Positions 12,095-45,015 of a stretch of 47,448 bases of DNA are shown in pieces; the stretch's first letter is position 1, and the number at the start of each line of letters is the position of its first letter. The DNA is from Flavobacteriales bacterium (lineage in GTDB: Bacteria > Bacteroidota > Bacteroidia > NS11-12g > UBA955). The stretch covers positions 1-47,448 of the forward strand of contig NSIB01000003.1 of assembly GCA_002737625.1 (NCBI GenBank), written 5' to 3'. Both the position numbers and the translations under genes were made by a program. The notes under the pieces were generated by a model that worked only from the letters and a program-made list of their open reading frames with translations, did no database searches and had not been told where the DNA came from.

Positions 12095-12153
12095 AAGGTT
12101 AGACAAATTCAGATCGTTGCGGGTCGTTTCGATGCGTATGCGGTTGTATCTTT

Positions 12154-12183
12154 GAGGCCCGGCGAAGCCGGGCCTCTTTTTTT
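12154..12183 (+). terminator. Rho-independent terminator between the transketolase C gene and mfd
   Basis: GAGGCCCGGC-GAA-GCCGGGCCTC perfect 10-bp stem followed by TTTTTTT. Confidence 0.88.
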
Positions 12184-12205
12184 ACGGGGTAGTGAGCAAT
12201 ACACG

Positions 12206-15200
12206 ATGAATACGAGAGAAATTTTGGGTGCCTTTGCCCAAATCCAACCCATGCAAGCACTGTCGGCCGCGGCGGAGCACGCGGCCGAACCCATCTACCT
12301 CCAAGGGCTGGCTGGCTCGGGCTTCGCCCTCGCCACCGCCACCCTCTACGCTTCAATATCCCGTCCCATCATCGCAATCCTCCCCAACAAAGACGAAGCC
12401 CAATATTTTAAATCCGACCTCGAAAATCTCCTCGTCGGTGAATCCATCTATTTCCTCCCAGATTCCTTCCTCAAACCCTATAATGCCGCCCGTGAAAATG
12501 CCATGGGTGTGCAAGAACGTATCGAAACCCTCAATGCCCTTCGTAAAAATAACAAACGCATCTTCGTAACCTATGGCTCCGCCATAGCAGAATATGTGGT
12601 CGATAAAATTGAACTCGAAAAATCTTCCATCGATATCGCTAGAGGCCAAAATCTAGATACCGAATTTTTGATGGAATTTCTGGAAATCAATGGCTTTGAA
12701 CGACGGGATTTTGTGTTCGCTCCCGGTGAATTTAGCATCCGCGGGGGAATTGTCGACCTATTCAGTTTCGCCCACGAATTCCCCTTTCGCATAGAACTCG
12801 ATGGTGATATCATCGAAAGTATCCGTACGTTTGATGTCAACGACCAACTTTCCCTCAAAGAAATTGCCCATTTCTCGCTTCTCCCCAATATTCAAGATCA
12901 ACGCGATCAAGAAACCACAATATCCATTACCGATTACTTTGATCCTAAAACACTGGTTGTTGCGTTCGACCTTAGCTTTCAAATTGAAGAACTTGGCAAA
13001 GCCTGGGAAAAAGCCCTCCAAATCCATCAAGAAGCCGTTGATTTTGGCAGAGAAGTCATCCCCAAACACCCCAAACAAATTTGGAATACGCCCAAAGGCC
13101 TCATGTCGGCCCTACAGCCCTTCACTCAAATACATAATAGCGGCGCTAGACCCACCGGAAAAATTGAAATTATCGAATTCTTGCAACAGCCGCAACCGCT
13201 CTTCAAAAGGAATTTTTCGATGCTCACCGAATGGATGCAATCCAATAAAGCCGAAGGCCTATCAACACTTGTATTTAGTGAGAATAGCCGTCAGATAGAA
13301 CGACTCATTGCAATTTTAGCCGATACCCAGTCCCAAGTCAGCTTTGAACCCGTGTATCAGGGATTGTCGTCCGGATTTGTGGATCGCGACGTAAAAATTG
13401 CTTTTACAACAGAGCATCAGCTGTTTGATAAATATTATCGTCCGCGGGGACGACAAAAATATTCGTCGCAAACATCGCTCACGTTAAGAGAACTAAAACA
13501 CTTAAAACCCGGGGATTTTGTTACTCATATTGATCATGGCATCGGCAGATTTGCGGGCCTGGAGAAAATGGATGTTCACGGTGTAAAGCAGGAAGTGGTG
13601 CGCATCGTATACAAGGACAACGATTTACTCTATGTGTCTGTGAATAGTTTGCACAAAATAAGTAAATACACAGGAAAGGATGGCACACCCCCAAGCATGC
13701 ACAAGTTGGGGAGTCCACAGTGGGATAAACAGAAAAAGGCGACAAAAAAGAAGGTTAAAGATATTGCCCGAGAGTTGATTGCATTGTACGCAAAGCGGAA
13801 ATTACAGCAGGGATTTGCGTTTGGGCCAGACAATTATATGCAGATGGAGTTGGAAGCCAGCTTTTTTTATGAGGATACGCCGGATCAAGCCAAAGCGGTG
13901 GAGGATACAAAACGAGATATGGAATCTCCGCAGCCGATGGACCGATTGGTGTGTGGCGATGTGGGTTTCGGCAAAACAGAGGTCGCCATGCGCGCCGCAT
14001 TTAAAGCCGTTTGTGATAGTAAACAGGTGGCGGTTCTAGTGCCAACAACAATTTTAGCACAACAGCATTTCCGTTCATTCTCAAAGCGATTTGCGGGGTT
14101 TCCTATAACCGTGGATTATATAAACCGATTTAAATCGGCCAAGGAGCAAAAAGACACATTGGAGAAGGTGAAAGCGGGAAAAGTAGATGTGCTCATTGGT
14201 ACGCATCGTATTTTAGGCAAAGACATCGAGTTTAAAGATTTGGGGTTGATGATCATCGACGAAGAACAGAAATTTGGTGTGGCCGCCAAAGAGAAATTGA
14301 AGGAATTTAAAGTAAATGTGGATGCACTCACACTCACGGCTACACCCATACCGCGGACTTTGCACTTTAGCTTGATGGGAGCTCGGGATTTGTCTATTAT
14401 TAACACCCCACCGCCCAACCGTCAGCCTGTGCATACCGAATTACACATGTTCAACAAGGACTTAATTGCCGAGGCGGTTCAGCAAGAAATGGAACGGGGC
14501 GGACAGATCTTCTTTGTTCATAGCCGGGTGAAAGACATCCATGAGATGGCCAGAATTATTGGAGATCTGGTGCCTGGATGCAGGGTTTGTGTGGCTCATG
14601 GTCAGATGGAAGGACATGAATTGGAAGATGCGATGGTTCAGTTTATTGAGGGGGAGTTTGATGTACTCGTGGCAACAACCATTATTGAGAGTGGGTTGGA
14701 TATTCCCAATGCCAATACAATTATTATCAACAATGCGCACATGTTTGGTCTGAGTGATTTGCACCAAATGCGGGGTAGGGTGGGCCGTAGCAATACCAAG
14801 GCTTTCTGTTATTTGCTTTCACCTCCGGTATCTGTTTTGAGTGAGGATGCGCGGAAAAGATTGCGCACGTTGGAAGAATACAGTGAATTGGGCAGTGGGT
14901 TTCAGGTTGCGATGCGGGATTTGGATATCCGAGGGGCTGGAAATTTATTGGGCGGAGAGCAGTCTGGATTCATCAGCGAAATGGGGTTTGACATGTATCA
15001 TAAGATTTTGGATGAAGCGGTGAGGGAGTTAAAAAATGAAGAGTTTGATGCGTTGTTTGATCAACCCGACGATATCAGCAGCCGAGACTGTCAAGTAGAT
15101 ACCCAATTTGAAATGCTCATTCCATCGGAATACGTCACCCAAACCTCGGAACGATTGGCGTTGTACAGTGAATTATCAAATATTAATACGGAATTGGAAT

Positions 15201-15550
15201 TGCAGCGATTTGCAAACAATTTAAAAGATCGATTTGGTAAAATTCCAAATACGGTGGCGGCATTATTGGATACCGTTCGATTAAAATGGGCGGGCAAACA
15301 GCTTGGAATGGAGAAAATTTCACTCGGAAACGGTGGAATGCGTTGCTATTTTCCTGGCGATGCCAATGCGGCAGTATATCACAGCGACAGTTTTGTGGCC
15401 ATTATGGGTTTTGTTGCTAGCAATCCCAATAAGTTTAGCGTTAGACAAACCGATAAAGCGCTGATTGTGAGTGTGAAAGGGTTGGAAACGGTTTTCGAAG
15501 CGCTCCATGTATTGGGGGAATGGGACTTGCATCGGACAACAGAAATATAA
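12206..15550 (+). CDS. mfd: Transcription-repair coupling factor
   Basis: PGDFVTHIDHGIGRFAGL, DRLVCGDVGFGKTEVAMRAAFKAV, IIDEEQKFGV, LTATPIPRTLHFSLMGARDLS, GRVGRSNTKAFCYLL. ATG at 12206 lies downstream of the terminator; the listed 12152 start reads through it. Confidence 0.96.
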   Translation: MNTREILGAFAQIQPMQALSAAAEHAAEPIYLQGLAGSGFALATATLYASISRPIIAILPNKDEAQYFKSDLENLLVGESIYFLPDSFLKPYNAARENAMGVQERIETLNALRKNNKRIFVTYGSAIAEYVVDKIELEKSSIDIARGQNLDTEFLMEFLEINGFERRDFVFAPGEFSIRGGIVDLFSFAHEFPFRIELDGDIIESIRTFDVNDQLSLKEIAHFSLLPNIQDQRDQETTISITDYFDPKTLVVAFDLSFQIEELGKAWEKALQIHQEAVDFGREVIPKHPKQIWNTPKGLMSALQPFTQIHNSGARPTGKIEIIEFLQQPQPLFKRNFSMLTEWMQSNKAEGLSTLVFSENSRQIERLIAILADTQSQVSFEPVYQGLSSGFVDRDVKIAFTTEHQLFDKYYRPRGRQKYSSQTSLTLRELKHLKPGDFVTHIDHGIGRFAGLEKMDVHGVKQEVVRIVYKDNDLLYVSVNSLHKISKYTGKDGTPPSMHKLGSPQWDKQKKATKKKVKDIARELIALYAKRKLQQGFAFGPDNYMQMELEASFFYEDTPDQAKAVEDTKRDMESPQPMDRLVCGDVGFGKTEVAMRAAFKAVCDSKQVAVLVPTTILAQQHFRSFSKRFAGFPITVDYINRFKSAKEQKDTLEKVKAGKVDVLIGTHRILGKDIEFKDLGLMIIDEEQKFGVAAKEKLKEFKVNVDALTLTATPIPRTLHFSLMGARDLSIINTPPPNRQPVHTELHMFNKDLIAEAVQQEMERGGQIFFVHSRVKDIHEMARIIGDLVPGCRVCVAHGQMEGHELEDAMVQFIEGEFDVLVATTIIESGLDIPNANTIIINNAHMFGLSDLHQMRGRVGRSNTKAFCYLLSPPVSVLSEDARKRLRTLEEYSELGSGFQVAMRDLDIRGAGNLLGGEQSGFISEMGFDMYHKILDEAVRELKNEEFDALFDQPDDISSRDCQVDTQFEMLIPSEYVTQTSERLALYSELSNINTELELQRFANNLKDRFGKIPNTVAALLDTVRLKWAGKQLGMEKISLGNGGMRCYFPGDANAAVYHSDSFVAIMGFVASNPNKFSVRQTDKALIVSVKGLETVFEALHVLGEWDLHRTTEI
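12263..12288 (+). repeat. GC-rich inverted repeat at the 5' end of the mfd CDS
   Basis: TCGGCCGCG-gcggagca-CGCGGCCGA perfect 9-bp arms. Confidence 0.8.
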
Positions 15551-24186: not shown

Positions 24187-25305
24187 ATGCGGAAAGTAAA
24201 TTCTTTTTTTGAAGTAAATTTAGTCCTGGGATTGGGTTTCCTATTGATTTTGGCTGGTTGCGGTGCAATGGGCTCCAAGAGACATGGGTGCAAGGTGGAT
24301 ACGCATCTTTTAGATTCGCTTCTTGCATCGGGTTCCAATCAACCACCGGTGGCTCCTCTTCGGGTGTCGTTTTATAATTTGGAGAATTTATTTGATACGG
24401 TAGATGGTCCAAACGACGATACGGAGTTTTTGCCGAATTCGGCGAATGCATGGAACGGTGAGAGGTATAAGAGTAAGTTGCGGAATATGGCGCAGGTTAT
24501 TGATAGTATAGCACCTGACATTTTGGGATTGGTAGAATTAGAGAATGCTTTTGTTTTGGAGGATTTGCGTGCCAACAGTGTGGTGATGAAGGGGAAGTTT
24601 GAGATTGCGCATCGGGAATCTCCGGATTTAAGGGGTATTGATGTTGCGCTGATGTATAATGCGGAGTTATTTAGAATTTCTGGGATATGTATGATTCCAA
24701 TTACTTTGCCTGATGGTTATGCCACGCGGAGTATTATGCGGGTTCATTTGGTTGAGAAGGGCACGGGTGATTCTTTGGCGGTATTTATTAACCATTGGCC
24801 AAGTCGTCGCGGCGGTGCGGCCAGTGCGGCAAGCCGCATGGCCGCCGCCGCCGCTCTCTTGCAAAACATTCAATCTTTACCCAATCTACCCAATAATTAT
24901 ATCCTTTTGGGTGATTTTAACGATGATCCAGAAGATAAATCAATCACCGAGGGTCTCAATGCTGGTGATTCATATCACCCCATTGTCAATTTGGCTTTTC
25001 TTGCGCGCGCGAAAGACACTACCGTGGGCACCATTGCTTGGTATGATGGCTGGAATATGTTTGATCAAATCATGTTGAGTAGGGCCCTGTATTTTGCCAA
25101 CTTGCACAACAATGAAACACTGGCCAACAAACAAATTGCCGTTGCTGAGCCTCGTATCAACGTATATAAACGCCCTTGGATGCTTCAGCATGGAGGGAAA
25201 TACGATGGTTGGCCCTTGCGAACCTTTGCCGGTAAAAAATACATGAATGGGTATTCAGATCACTTGCCCGTCTATACAGACCTGGTCCTCGTGCATCGTC
25301 ATTAA
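24187..25305 (+). CDS. Endonuclease/exonuclease/phosphatase (EEP) family lipoprotein
   Basis: Lipobox LILAGCGAM; EEP motifs FYNLENLFDTVD, LGLVELEN, NHWPSRRGG, ILLGDFNDDPED, GYSDHLPVYTDLVL. Confidence 0.88.
   Translation: MRKVNSFFEVNLVLGLGFLLILAGCGAMGSKRHGCKVDTHLLDSLLASGSNQPPVAPLRVSFYNLENLFDTVDGPNDDTEFLPNSANAWNGERYKSKLRNMAQVIDSIAPDILGLVELENAFVLEDLRANSVVMKGKFEIAHRESPDLRGIDVALMYNAELFRISGICMIPITLPDGYATRSIMRVHLVEKGTGDSLAVFINHWPSRRGGAASAASRMAAAAALLQNIQSLPNLPNNYILLGDFNDDPEDKSITEGLNAGDSYHPIVNLAFLARAKDTTVGTIAWYDGWNMFDQIMLSRALYFANLHNNETLANKQIAVAEPRINVYKRPWMLQHGGKYDGWPLRTFAGKKYMNGYSDHLPVYTDLVLVHRH
24809..24854 (+). repeat. GC-rich inverted repeat inside the EEP-family gene
   Basis: GCGGCGG.GCGGCCA.TGCGGC-aa-GCCGCA.TGGCCGC..CCGCCGC: 20 bp paired in 46 nt with one bulge and one small internal loop. 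Confidence 0.88.
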
Positions 25306-42552: not shown

Positions 42553-45015
42553 GTGACGGAGATTCAGACCCTTTTTGCGCATGTGTTGGTGCCAGTGCCG
42601 GTGCCAAAGGCCTATACGTATCGGGTTCCTCACGATTGGAACGACTGGATTCATCAGGGTTTGAGGGTTGCGGTGCAATTTGGACCAAAGAAGATATATG
42701 CAGGAATTATTTTGGAGCTGAGTGATTCTCCACCGGAGGGTTATCAAGCTTCTTATATCTTGGATGTGTTGGACGATGCACCCATTGTGAATCACAAGCA
42801 ATTGCAGTTTTGGCGTTGGGTGGCCAAATATTATATGTGTTATTTGGGGGAGGTGATGGCTACTGCGTTGCCAGCGGGGTATCGACTTCAGAGTGAGACG
42901 AAGATTGTTTTGCATCCCGATGCAGATTTGGAAGCGATAAGTAGGACTGATGTTGAAGATTTGGAGTGGCAGATTTTGGAGTTGTTAGGGAAGAAGGATG
43001 GGATGTCGTTGGACGATATACATCAAAAGCTGGCGGTTAAGAATGTGCTGAAGCATGTTAAGTCGTTGTATTTAAGGGGTTTGGTGGTAATGGAGGAGGA
43101 GTTGAAGGAGAATTATCGACCTAAATATGAGGAGTTTTTAGAGTTGTGCAGTATTTGGGATGATTCGGAATTGGCAAATTCGAGTTTGAACGCGTTGGAG
43201 CGACGTGCACCGAAGCAGTATGAGGCGATTATGCATATTTTGGGGACGGGAAAGAGGGAGTTGACGGTGGAATCAATTGTGAAGGGATTTGAGATGGACA
43301 GGACGGTGCTGAAGCAGTTAGAGAAGAAGTCGTTGATAATGATTGTGAAGCGCCGCCGCGATCACCTTCAGGTGATCCGCGGCGGCGCGCAAGAATACCA
43401 ACTCACCGAATCTCAGTCGCGGGCCCTTGGAATCATTCGCGCTGGATTTGAAGAAAAACAGCCGGCCTTGCTTTACGGGGTTACGGGATCGGGTAAAACC
43501 CATGTGTATATGGAGTTGGTGAAGGAGACGTTGGCGGCGGGGAAACAGGTGCTTTATTTGTTGCCAGAGGTTGCACTAACGGAGCATATGGTGGCTCGGA
43601 TGGGTGCGTTTTTGCCGGTGGAAATTGGCGTTTGGCATCACTTTTATAGTTCTCACGAGAGGACGGAATTGTACGATCGGATATTGAAGGATCAAATCCA
43701 GTTTGTGGTGGGTACTAAAGGGGCGGTGTTTGCTCCTTTTTCTAATTTGGGGTTGATTGTGGTGGATGAGGAGCATGAATCAACGTATAAGCAGTTTGAT
43801 AAAAAGCCATTTTATCACGGTCGGGATTCGGCGTTTCAGTTGGCCAAGTATCATGGGGCCAATGTTTTGTTGGGTTCGGCTACGCCGAGTTATGAAATGC
43901 AGTTTGCTGTGCAGCAGCATCGTATGGTAATTGCCGAAATAACGGAGAAGTACGATGGCGGAAAACCGGCTGAGTTGATGTATTTGAATATCGGTGAGTT
44001 GAAGAAAACGGGTCAGATGAATTCGTTGTTTTCCGAGCCGGTGAGGATGGCCATTCAGAAGGCGATGGATGTGAAGCAGAAGGTGGTGGTGTATCACAAT
44101 CGAAAGGGGTATGTGCCTTATATTGAGTGTGGGGATTGTGGGTTGACAACGCAGTGCAAGCATTGTGATATTTCGATGACCTACTATAAGAGTTCAGACA
44201 ATCAGCGATGCAGTTATTGTGGGTTTCAGCAGCCGGTACCATCGAAATGTGTGGCCTGTGGTTCTCAGGATTTGAAGTTGAAGGGGACGGGCACGGAGAA
44301 GTTGGCGGAGGAATTGGGGCAGCTGTTTCCCAAGGCTAGGGTGGCGCGGTTTGACCAGCAGAGCATGCGGAAGCGGGATGATTTTCAGAATATTTTGACG
44401 GCGTTTGAGCGGGGTGATATTGATATTTTGGTGGGGACGCAGTTGTTATCGAAGGGGATTGATATAGAGAATATCGGCTTGGTTGTGGTGCCGGATGCGG
44501 ATATGTTGTTGCACATTCCTGATTTTAGGAGTCATGAACGGGCATTTCAGCAACTGCAACAATTGAGTGGTAGGATAGGGCGCCGCGCGGAGCGCGGCGT
44601 GATGATGTTACAGACATATCAACCGGAACATGAAGTATTGAAGTCCCTGAAAGCCGATGATTACCAAGGGTTGATGCAAGTGGAAATGGAGCAGCGCGAA
44701 GCCTTCGGCTATCCTCCTTACACAAAGTTGATTAAGGTGGATGTGAAGCACATAGATGCACAAGTGGCGACCGAGGCCAGCCGTTGGCTGGCCGACCAAT
44801 TGCGAAAGCAATTGGGGAACCTGGTGCTGGGGCCCCAGGTTCCTTCGGTCGCCCGCATAAAAAATCGATTCATCCAGCAAATTGTCATCAAGGTCCCCCG
44901 AGAAACCGCCCAACTGAACGCCGCAAAATTCCTATTGCAACAAGTTCGTGAAGCGGCCTTGGCTCACAACAGTTGGCGTTCGGTTCGCATCGATATTATC
45001 ATCGATCCCAATTAA
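42553..45015 (+). CDS. priA: Primosomal protein N' (replication restart helicase PriA), GTG start
   Basis: LLYGVTGSGKTHVYMELV, VDEEHESTYKQ, LLGSATPSYE, zinc-binding CGDCGLTTQCKHCDISMTYY...CSYCGFQQPVPSKCVACGS, QLSGRIGRRAERG. Confidence 0.96.
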   Translation: MTEIQTLFAHVLVPVPVPKAYTYRVPHDWNDWIHQGLRVAVQFGPKKIYAGIILELSDSPPEGYQASYILDVLDDAPIVNHKQLQFWRWVAKYYMCYLGEVMATALPAGYRLQSETKIVLHPDADLEAISRTDVEDLEWQILELLGKKDGMSLDDIHQKLAVKNVLKHVKSLYLRGLVVMEEELKENYRPKYEEFLELCSIWDDSELANSSLNALERRAPKQYEAIMHILGTGKRELTVESIVKGFEMDRTVLKQLEKKSLIMIVKRRRDHLQVIRGGAQEYQLTESQSRALGIIRAGFEEKQPALLYGVTGSGKTHVYMELVKETLAAGKQVLYLLPEVALTEHMVARMGAFLPVEIGVWHHFYSSHERTELYDRILKDQIQFVVGTKGAVFAPFSNLGLIVVDEEHESTYKQFDKKPFYHGRDSAFQLAKYHGANVLLGSATPSYEMQFAVQQHRMVIAEITEKYDGGKPAELMYLNIGELKKTGQMNSLFSEPVRMAIQKAMDVKQKVVVYHNRKGYVPYIECGDCGLTTQCKHCDISMTYYKSSDNQRCSYCGFQQPVPSKCVACGSQDLKLKGTGTEKLAEELGQLFPKARVARFDQQSMRKRDDFQNILTAFERGDIDILVGTQLLSKGIDIENIGLVVVPDADMLLHIPDFRSHERAFQQLQQLSGRIGRRAERGVMMLQTYQPEHEVLKSLKADDYQGLMQVEMEQREAFGYPPYTKLIKVDVKHIDAQVATEASRWLADQLRKQLGNLVLGPQVPSVARIKNRFIQQIVIKVPRETAQLNAAKFLLQQVREAALAHNSWRSVRIDIIIDPN
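43350..43388 (+). repeat. Long GC-rich inverted repeat inside priA
   Basis: GCGCCGCCGCGATCACC-ttca-GGTGATCCGCGGCGGCGC: 17 bp paired with one bulged base. Confidence 0.9.
44581..44599 (+). repeat. GC-only inverted repeat inside priA
   Basis: CGCCGCGC-gga-GCGCGGCG: perfect 8-bp stem. Confidence 0.85.
44766..44853 (+). repeat. Nested inverted repeats forming a potential four-way junction inside priA
   Basis: Outer stem GGCGACCGA/TCGGTCGCC (9 bp) encloses GGCCAGCC-gtt-GGCTGGCC, CCAATTGC-gaaa-GCAATTGG and GGAACCTGG-(10 nt)-CCAGGTTCC. Confidence 0.88.

What the first reader, a model, noticed from the sequence alone, without database searches (positions are those of the whole stretch)
44766..44853. 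88-nt perfect four-way-junction fold embedded in the priA coding sequence
Seen directly: outer stem GGCGACCGA (44766-44774) / TCGGTCGCC (44845-44853), 9 bp. It encloses three back-to-back hairpins. H1 is GGCCAGCC-gtt-GGCTGGCC (44775-44793, 8 bp). H2 is CCAATTGC-gaaa-GCAATTGG (44796-44815, 8 bp, GNRA-type GAAA loop). H3 is GGAACCTGG-10nt-CCAGGTTCC (44816-44843, 9 bp). In total 68 of 88 nt are in exact Watson-Crick pairs, with only 3 unpaired junction bases (ga and t). The region also encodes the PriA C-terminal stretch VATEASRWLADQLRKQLGNLVLGPQVPSVARIK, so protein and nucleic-acid structure share the same bases. It ends 227 nt before the hpd start codon. Possible roles (inference): a structured RNA processed from or acting within the mRNA, an attenuator for hpd, a DNA cruciform or recombinase site, or a palindromic mobile element absorbed into the gene.
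Basis: partly seen in the sequence, partly recalled or inferred. Interest (0 to 1): 0.85.

Follow-up and report, generated by a model that had tools for sequence, protein, structure and literature searches.

The report
Template-switch palindromes in bacterial genes
A perfect four-way hairpin fold really is written into the priA gene, and it is one of many long perfect hairpins inside the genes of this lake-bacterium lineage whose two arms change together and whose loops flip, which points to DNA copying errors that repeatedly rewrite one arm from the other rather than to a new regulatory RNA.

Summary
The 88-nt four-way fold at 44766-44853 is exact (-64.4 kcal/mol), and none of 60,000 synonymous recodings reaches it. 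It lies in a genuine, uninterrupted priA; homologues align without gaps, so nothing was inserted.

It is not a one-off. This genome carries 16 perfect CDS hairpins of at least 12 bp (loop 3-8 nt) in 0.89 Mb, against 0.2 in synonymous shuffles. Fewer occur in one same-genus genome, and none in the deepest genus member, two other genera or sampled E. coli.

Orthologues in the genus show three marks of hairpin-templated (template-switch) mutation. Both arms change together, often at the cost of amino acids. Triloops are reverse-complemented (tgc/gca, ttc/gaa). Shared cores carry different but still complementary outer arms. G-U intermediates are not enriched, codon-phase bias matches the coding palindromes of hairworm mitochondria, and the priA fold was built in stages.

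Best reading: template switching makes and re-perfects palindromes, and the protein limits which survive. A function for the priA fold is not supported but not fully excluded, because the block is unusually conserved. The mechanism is known; a lineage-specific case in conserved bacterial chromosomal genes appears undescribed in the papers searched.

The parts
42553..45015 (+). priA, replication restart helicase PriA (primosomal protein N'), 820 aa, host gene of the fold
   Evidence: TIGR00595 E 7.6e-148; full-length homologues without gaps across the fold in same-genus genomes
44766..44774 (+). outer stem, left arm GGCGACCGA (9 bp)
   Evidence: sequence; pairs with 44845-44853 in the MFE
44845..44853 (+). 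outer stem, right arm TCGGTCGCC
44775..44793 (+). hairpin H1 GGCCAGCC-gtt-GGCTGGCC (8 bp); the oldest part, also present in L008-L011
44796..44815 (+). hairpin H2 CCAATTGC-gaaa-GCAATTGG (8 bp); loop is ggaa in L007, L014 and L016
44816..44843 (+). hairpin H3 GGAACCTGG-10nt-CCAGGTTCC (9 bp)
   Evidence: one mismatch in L016
43350..43388 (+). second coding palindrome in priA, GCGCCGCCGCGATCACC-ttca-GGTGATCcGCGGCGGCGC; shared by L001-L006 and, apart from its outermost pair in L008-L010, by L008-L011; degraded in L007/L014; absent in L012/L013
44581..44599 (+). third coding palindrome in priA, CGCCGCGC-gga-GCGCGGCG
24809..24854 (+). coding palindrome of the same kind in another window gene (ORF 24187-25305), about 20 bp with two small interruptions
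12263..12288 (+). short coding palindrome TCGGCCGCG-8nt-CGCGGCCGA in ORF 12152-15550

Best explanation
The 88-nt fold is a cluster of coding palindromes made and kept perfect by hairpin-templated mutation during DNA replication. When the strand is single-stranded, an imperfect inverted repeat folds back and the polymerase copies one arm while making the other, then returns. One event rewrites several bases, makes the arms perfect complements, and can leave the loop inverted. Repeated events lengthen a hairpin outward from a core and add neighbours. In priA, H1 came first; H2, H3 and the outer stem are seen only in the window's clade and L007/L014. Once arms are coupled, a substitution survives only if the protein tolerates it in both arms, which slows change in the block. 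Shown: the fold, the genome-wide excess, its restriction to part of the genus, joint arm changes, loop inversions, lineage-specific arm rewriting. Inferred: that replication template switching is the agent, that no function is needed, and why this lineage is enriched.
For: (1) Genome-wide: CDS hairpins with stem >=12 bp and loop 3-8 nt number 16 in 0.89 Mb against 0.2 in synonymous shuffles, stems >=18 bp number 5 against 0; with looser settings, >=12 bp is 25 against 0-3. Lineage: G013 has 3 in 0.32 Mb, G008 0 in 0.31 Mb, G024 and G022 0 in 0.32 Mb together, E. coli 0 in 0.18 Mb. (2) Joint arm changes: DprA 18-bp stem t:a/a:t and G:C/A:T; DUF4159 23- and 22-bp stems; glycosyltransferase core CTGCGGCG/CGCCGCAG with outer arms GCCTGTTG/CAACAGGC, GCGT/ACGC or GCG/CGC (covariation 0.212, shuffled 0.062, slid at most 0.133); WD40-type gene with W->R in the second arm; DnaE-like polymerase, 13 both-side cells against 4.9 shuffled and at most 5 slid. 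(3) Loop inversion: DUF4159 tgc->gca between near-identical arms; DnaE-like gene CCTTC-tgc/gca-GAAGG and GCCACGGC-gaa/ttc-GCCGTGGC. (4) Singly changed cells are 25 G-U against 144 mismatched, so pairing through wobble is not favoured. (5) Codon phases 2-3: 1-3: 3-3 are 12:6:2 for stems >=11 bp, near-even in shuffles, the same trend as hairworm mitochondria (PMC6649704). (6) Loop inversion plus arm homogenisation is the described signature of template switching in yeast genes (PMC8604942). (7) The residues in which the window differs from L008-L011 in the H2-H3 part of the block (K->R, S->Q, D->N, R->L) lie in H2 or H3.
Against: The priA block itself shows no compensatory pair: L007 and L014 keep 29 of 30 codons identical where the rest of the gene keeps 55-57% of same-residue codons. 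Arm coupling lowers synonymous freedom (17 of 108 double changes against 61 of 216 single), but four third-third pairs were free to vary and did not. No ancestral reconstruction of single events was done, and the number of genomes per hairpin is small. Controls are only moderately strong on their own (5-6 sequences).
Confidence: 0.72

Rival explanations
1. The fold, and the other coding hairpins, are selected nucleic-acid structures in mRNA (stability, pausing, attenuation before hpd) or in DNA (cruciform or protein-binding sites); compensatory changes reflect selection for pairing.
For: The 88-nt block is identical across about 20% flanking divergence, with edges near the outer stem. Covariation exists at other loci. 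9 of 13 triloops are GNA or TNC, a loop class I recall as unusually stable in DNA (own knowledge).
Against: Hairpins sit in unrelated genes at scattered positions. They come and go between close relatives: 43350-43388 is degraded in L007/L014 and H2, H3 and the outer stem are absent in L008-L011. G-U pairs are not enriched. Loops invert, which selection for pairing does not predict. No Rfam match or terminator.
Confidence: 0.18
2. The 88-nt block moved recently between the window's clade and the L007/L014 lineage by homologous recombination, so its identity reflects a short shared history; its origin may still be template switching (compatible with the best explanation).
For: 29 of 30 identical codons against 55-57% in the rest; leaving the block out, FastTree places L007/L014 with L008-L011 (support 0.92), which lack H2, H3 and the outer stem.
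Against: Identity stops within a few nucleotides of the outer stem on both sides, shorter than usual recombination tracts; the placement is only moderately supported and reads differently with the block included (0.70).
Confidence: 0.2
3. A mobile palindromic element inserted into priA in frame, like the Rickettsia palindromic elements.
For: Palindromic, in-frame, within a coding gene.
Against: No insertion: all homologues align without gaps across it down to about 40% identity. No second copy in the genome. Other coding hairpins share no sequence family (by eye).
Confidence: 0.01
4. Chance, or an assembly artefact such as fold-back chimeras in metagenome assembly.
For: The genome is a fragmented draft (61 contigs, 73.6% complete).
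Against: 0 of 60,000 recodings; the same fold is in separately assembled genomes from different studies; arms covary between species while the frame stays open.
Confidence: 0.01

Closest known systems
Coding palindromes in mitochondrial genes of Nematomorpha (Mikhailov et al. 2019, PMC6649704)
   Same: Perfect inverted repeats inside conserved protein-coding genes, both arms coding, gains and losses between species, depletion of third-third codon phase in long repeats, template switching or repeat conversion suggested.
   Different: There: animal mtDNA of about 15 kb, arms up to 142 bp, mean distance 37 bp. Here: a bacterial chromosome, arms of 8-23 bp, loops mostly 3-4 nt, with direct loop inversions and lineage-specific arm rewriting seen in orthologues.
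Template switching in Saccharomyces cerevisiae coding genes (Abraham & Hazkani-Covo 2021, PMC8604942)
   Same: Arm homogenisation and complete spacer inversion (for example tcc -> gga with 3-nt spacers) inside coding sequence, with amino-acid changes.
   Different: Individual events between strains (39 genes, 10 inversions); here long-lived palindromes recur in many genes of one bacterial lineage.
Template switching creating and maintaining RNA hairpins (Monttinen & Loytynoja 2022, PMC8794818)
   Same: The same mutational mechanism, giving perfect stems and multi-base compensatory changes.
   Different: Studied in RNA genes where structure is selected; here in protein genes where the structure conflicts with the protein.
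Excess of short inverted repeats in prokaryotic genomes (Huang & Mrazek 2014, PMC4060949, citing Ladoukakis & Eyre-Walker)
   Same: Inverted-repeat excess in coding sequence, template switching suggested.
   Different: Those are statistical excesses of mostly short repeats, near normal in most coding DNA; here stems reach 23 bp with phylogenetic evidence of the process.
Rickettsia palindromic elements
   Same: Palindromes within coding sequence.
   Different: Those are inserted repeat families; here there is no insertion and no repeat family.

Membership tests
Coding palindrome maintained by template switching | Perfect inverted repeat inside a real coding sequence, beyond synonymous expectation | tested here: met
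Coding palindrome maintained by template switching | Arms homogenised: joint changes of both arms between relatives | tested here: met
   Met at DprA, DUF4159, glycosyltransferase, WD40-type and DnaE-like loci; not seen in the priA 88-nt block, which hardly varies
Coding palindrome maintained by template switching | Spacer (loop) inversion between otherwise equal arms | tested here: met
   tgc/gca and ttc/gaa in the DUF4159 and DnaE-like genes; not observed in priA
Coding palindrome maintained by template switching | Single replication events seen directly | not testable with these tools
   Needs mutation accumulation or dense population sampling
Rickettsia-type palindromic mobile element | In-frame insertion relative to homologues | tested here: not met
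   Gapless homologues
Rickettsia-type palindromic mobile element | Several similar copies in the genome | tested here: not met
   One match in the held assembly
Structured regulatory RNA / attenuator | Match to a known RNA family or a terminator hairpin | tested here: not met
Structured regulatory RNA / attenuator | Covariation supporting this structure at this locus | tested here: inconclusive
   Block almost invariant where complete, absent elsewhere
Structured regulatory RNA / attenuator | Effect on expression of priA or hpd | not testable with these tools
   No expression data

The most novel reading that the evidence does not exclude
This clade of lake bacteria has a DNA-level system or defect that actively forms and copies hairpins across the chromosome, possibly tied to its clade-limited Mre11/Rad50-like gene pair or second DnaE-like polymerase, so that DNA symmetry is a standing force that rewrites conserved proteins, with some sites such as the priA four-way junction kept for a use.
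Probability: 0.12. Interest if true: 0.85.

Novelty: new variant of a known kind. Interest (0 to 1): 0.62.

Why it matters
Compensatory base changes in a stem are usually read as proof that the RNA structure is functional. Here they appear in protein-coding genes, together with loop inversions and amino-acid costs, which is what a copying mechanism gives without selection for structure; covariation searches in such genomes could therefore produce false RNA families. It also offers a natural bacterial lineage, with near relatives lacking the trait, in which the genetic cause of strong hairpin-templated mutation could be sought, and shows template switching as a source of multi-residue change in conserved bacterial proteins.

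Tried and rejected
Mobile element: rejected (gapless homologues, single copy). Known RNA family, tRNA, terminator or attenuator: nothing found. In-frame insertion in the DnaE-like gene: an extra stretch of roughly 200 nt at codon 412-414 in relatives, read in two of them, is an ordinary variable segment without long perfect hairpins. Loss of SbcCD as the cause: no match above cut-off in any of 37 same-family genomes, including genera without coding hairpins, so absence alone does not explain it. Loss of exonuclease VII: patchy and not matching the hairpin distribution. Long intergenic hairpins: stems >=18 bp occur in G000, G013 and also G008, which lacks long coding ones, so the intergenic trait may be genus-wide; the samples are small. 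Lavi et al. 2018 is not held.

Full report
Observation. The fold is exactly as described. Outer arms at 44766-44774 and 44845-44853, H1 44775-44793, H2 44796-44815 and H3 44816-44843 are all in the sequence and form the predicted minimum-energy structure at -64.4 kcal/mol. Sampling 20,000 synonymous versions of the same peptide under genome codon usage, priA codon usage and a GC3-boosted usage gives none as stable; the best reach -47.6, -51.2 and -56.7. The gene is a normal full-length priA.

What it is not. Homologues in the genus and beyond align without a gap across the block, so no element was inserted. The sequence occurs once in the held assembly. No Rfam family reaches its threshold, and there is no tRNA or terminator-like site. 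The hpd gene downstream carries no special link: the same type of hairpin is found in many unrelated genes.

History in priA. The full fold is present in L002-L006 and in L007 and L014, whose PriA is only 82-83% identical; L016 has it with one mismatch in H3. L008-L011 have only H1. L012, L013 and outgroups have none. The residues by which the window's H2-H3 part differs from L008-L011 (K->R, S->Q, D->N, R->L) fall in H2 or H3. A second palindrome at 43350-43388 is shared by L001-L006 and, apart from its outermost pair in L008-L010, by L008-L011, but is degraded in L007/L014. So the palindromes are gained in stages and lost.

Genome-wide picture. About 1.1 Mb of the assembly was read. In ORFs of at least 150 aa with ends trimmed, perfect stems of at least 12 bp with loops of 3-8 nt number 16, against a mean of 0.2 in shuffles that keep protein and codon usage; stems of at least 18 bp number 5 against 0. 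Looser settings give 25 against 0-3. The genes are real: a DnaE-like polymerase, Pol IV, DprA, a SpoU methylase, a glycosyltransferase, a DUF4159 protein and a rhodanese-thioredoxin protein match Pfam families. In the same genus, G013 shows a smaller excess (3 in 0.32 Mb) and G008, on a deep branch, none; two other genera of the family and 0.18 Mb of E. coli show none. Intergenic stems of at least 18 bp are seen in G000, G013 and G008 but not in the other genera or E. coli, on small samples.

Mechanism. Orthologues supply the test. In the DprA stem, pairs change together (t:a to a:t; G:C to A:T with Gly to Glu). In the DUF4159 gene, stems of 23 and 22 bp change on both sides, and one loop is tgc in one genome and gca, its reverse complement, in another. 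In the DnaE-like gene, loops gaa/ttc and tgc/gca alternate and the outer arms of the first hairpin were extended with different sequences in different lineages. In the glycosyltransferase gene, a common core CTGCGGCG-CGCCGCAG carries different but complementary outer arms in different genomes. In the WD40-type gene, two pairs change together, with Trp to Arg in the second arm. Counted pair changes exceed shuffled and slid controls in the DnaE-like and glycosyltransferase genes and moderately in the other two; sequences are few and related, so these counts are not probabilities. Among singly changed cells, 25 are G-U and 144 are mismatches, not the surplus of wobble expected if RNA pairing were selected. 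Codon phases of long stems are 12:6:2 for 2-3, 1-3 and 3-3 pairing, as in hairworm mitochondrial coding palindromes (PMC6649704). Arm homogenisation with complete spacer inversion is the published signature of template switching in yeast genes (PMC8604942), and the mechanism is known to make and mend perfect stems (PMC8794818).

The hard point. In L007 and L014 the priA block keeps 29 of 30 codons although only 55-57% of same-residue codons are kept elsewhere. Arm coupling explains part: only 17 of 108 double changes are synonymous in both arms, against 61 of 216 single ones. Four third-third pairs could still have changed. Recent exchange of the block is possible, since without it the tree places L007/L014 with L008-L011 (0.92), and so is selection on the structure. 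This is why confidence is 0.72 and not higher.

Status. The kind is known: template-switch palindromes, and coding palindromes in an organelle. The searches made found no description of a bacterial lineage with long coding palindromes in conserved chromosomal genes, but the library lacks most subscription journals. Why this lineage has them is open. SbcD above cut-off is missing throughout the sampled family, not only here. A Mre11/SbcD-like gene next to a Rad50-like ATPase gene and a second DnaE-like polymerase are seen in the hairpin-bearing part of the genus and not in G008/G012, but that is a single split on the tree and only a correlation; the Mre11-like gene was also not found in G000 itself, whose assembly is 73.6% complete.

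Noticed in passing
L299:2-1812 (G014 contig C54): Mre11/SbcD-like phosphoesterase (385 aa, PF00149, below the SbcD cut-off) next to a Rad50-like AAA_23 ATPase. SbcD-like hits of this strength occur in 11 of 15 genus genomes, not in G000, G006, G008 or G012 nor in other genera of the family.
   Followed up: partly
L069:702-3659: Second DnaE-like polymerase gene, itself carrying three adjacent coding hairpins; close orthologues in the genus except G008 and G012, which show only a ~30% identical paralogue.
   Followed up: partly
L046:14177-14237, L059:18994-19048, L051:13441-13492: Very long perfect hairpins outside long ORFs (29, 26 and 21 bp stems), longer than a terminator needs.
   Followed up: partly
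L250-L265, between the two hairpins of the WD40-type gene: The stretch between the two hairpins varies in length between relatives and in L257 holds a third perfect hairpin (CTTCCCGCGTTG-gaa-CAACGCGGGAAG), so hairpins may also seed in-frame length changes.
   Followed up: no
genome-wide coding hairpins of G000: 9 of 13 triloops are GNA or TNC (GNA on the other strand), suggesting DNA rather than RNA hairpin stability matters.
   Followed up: partly
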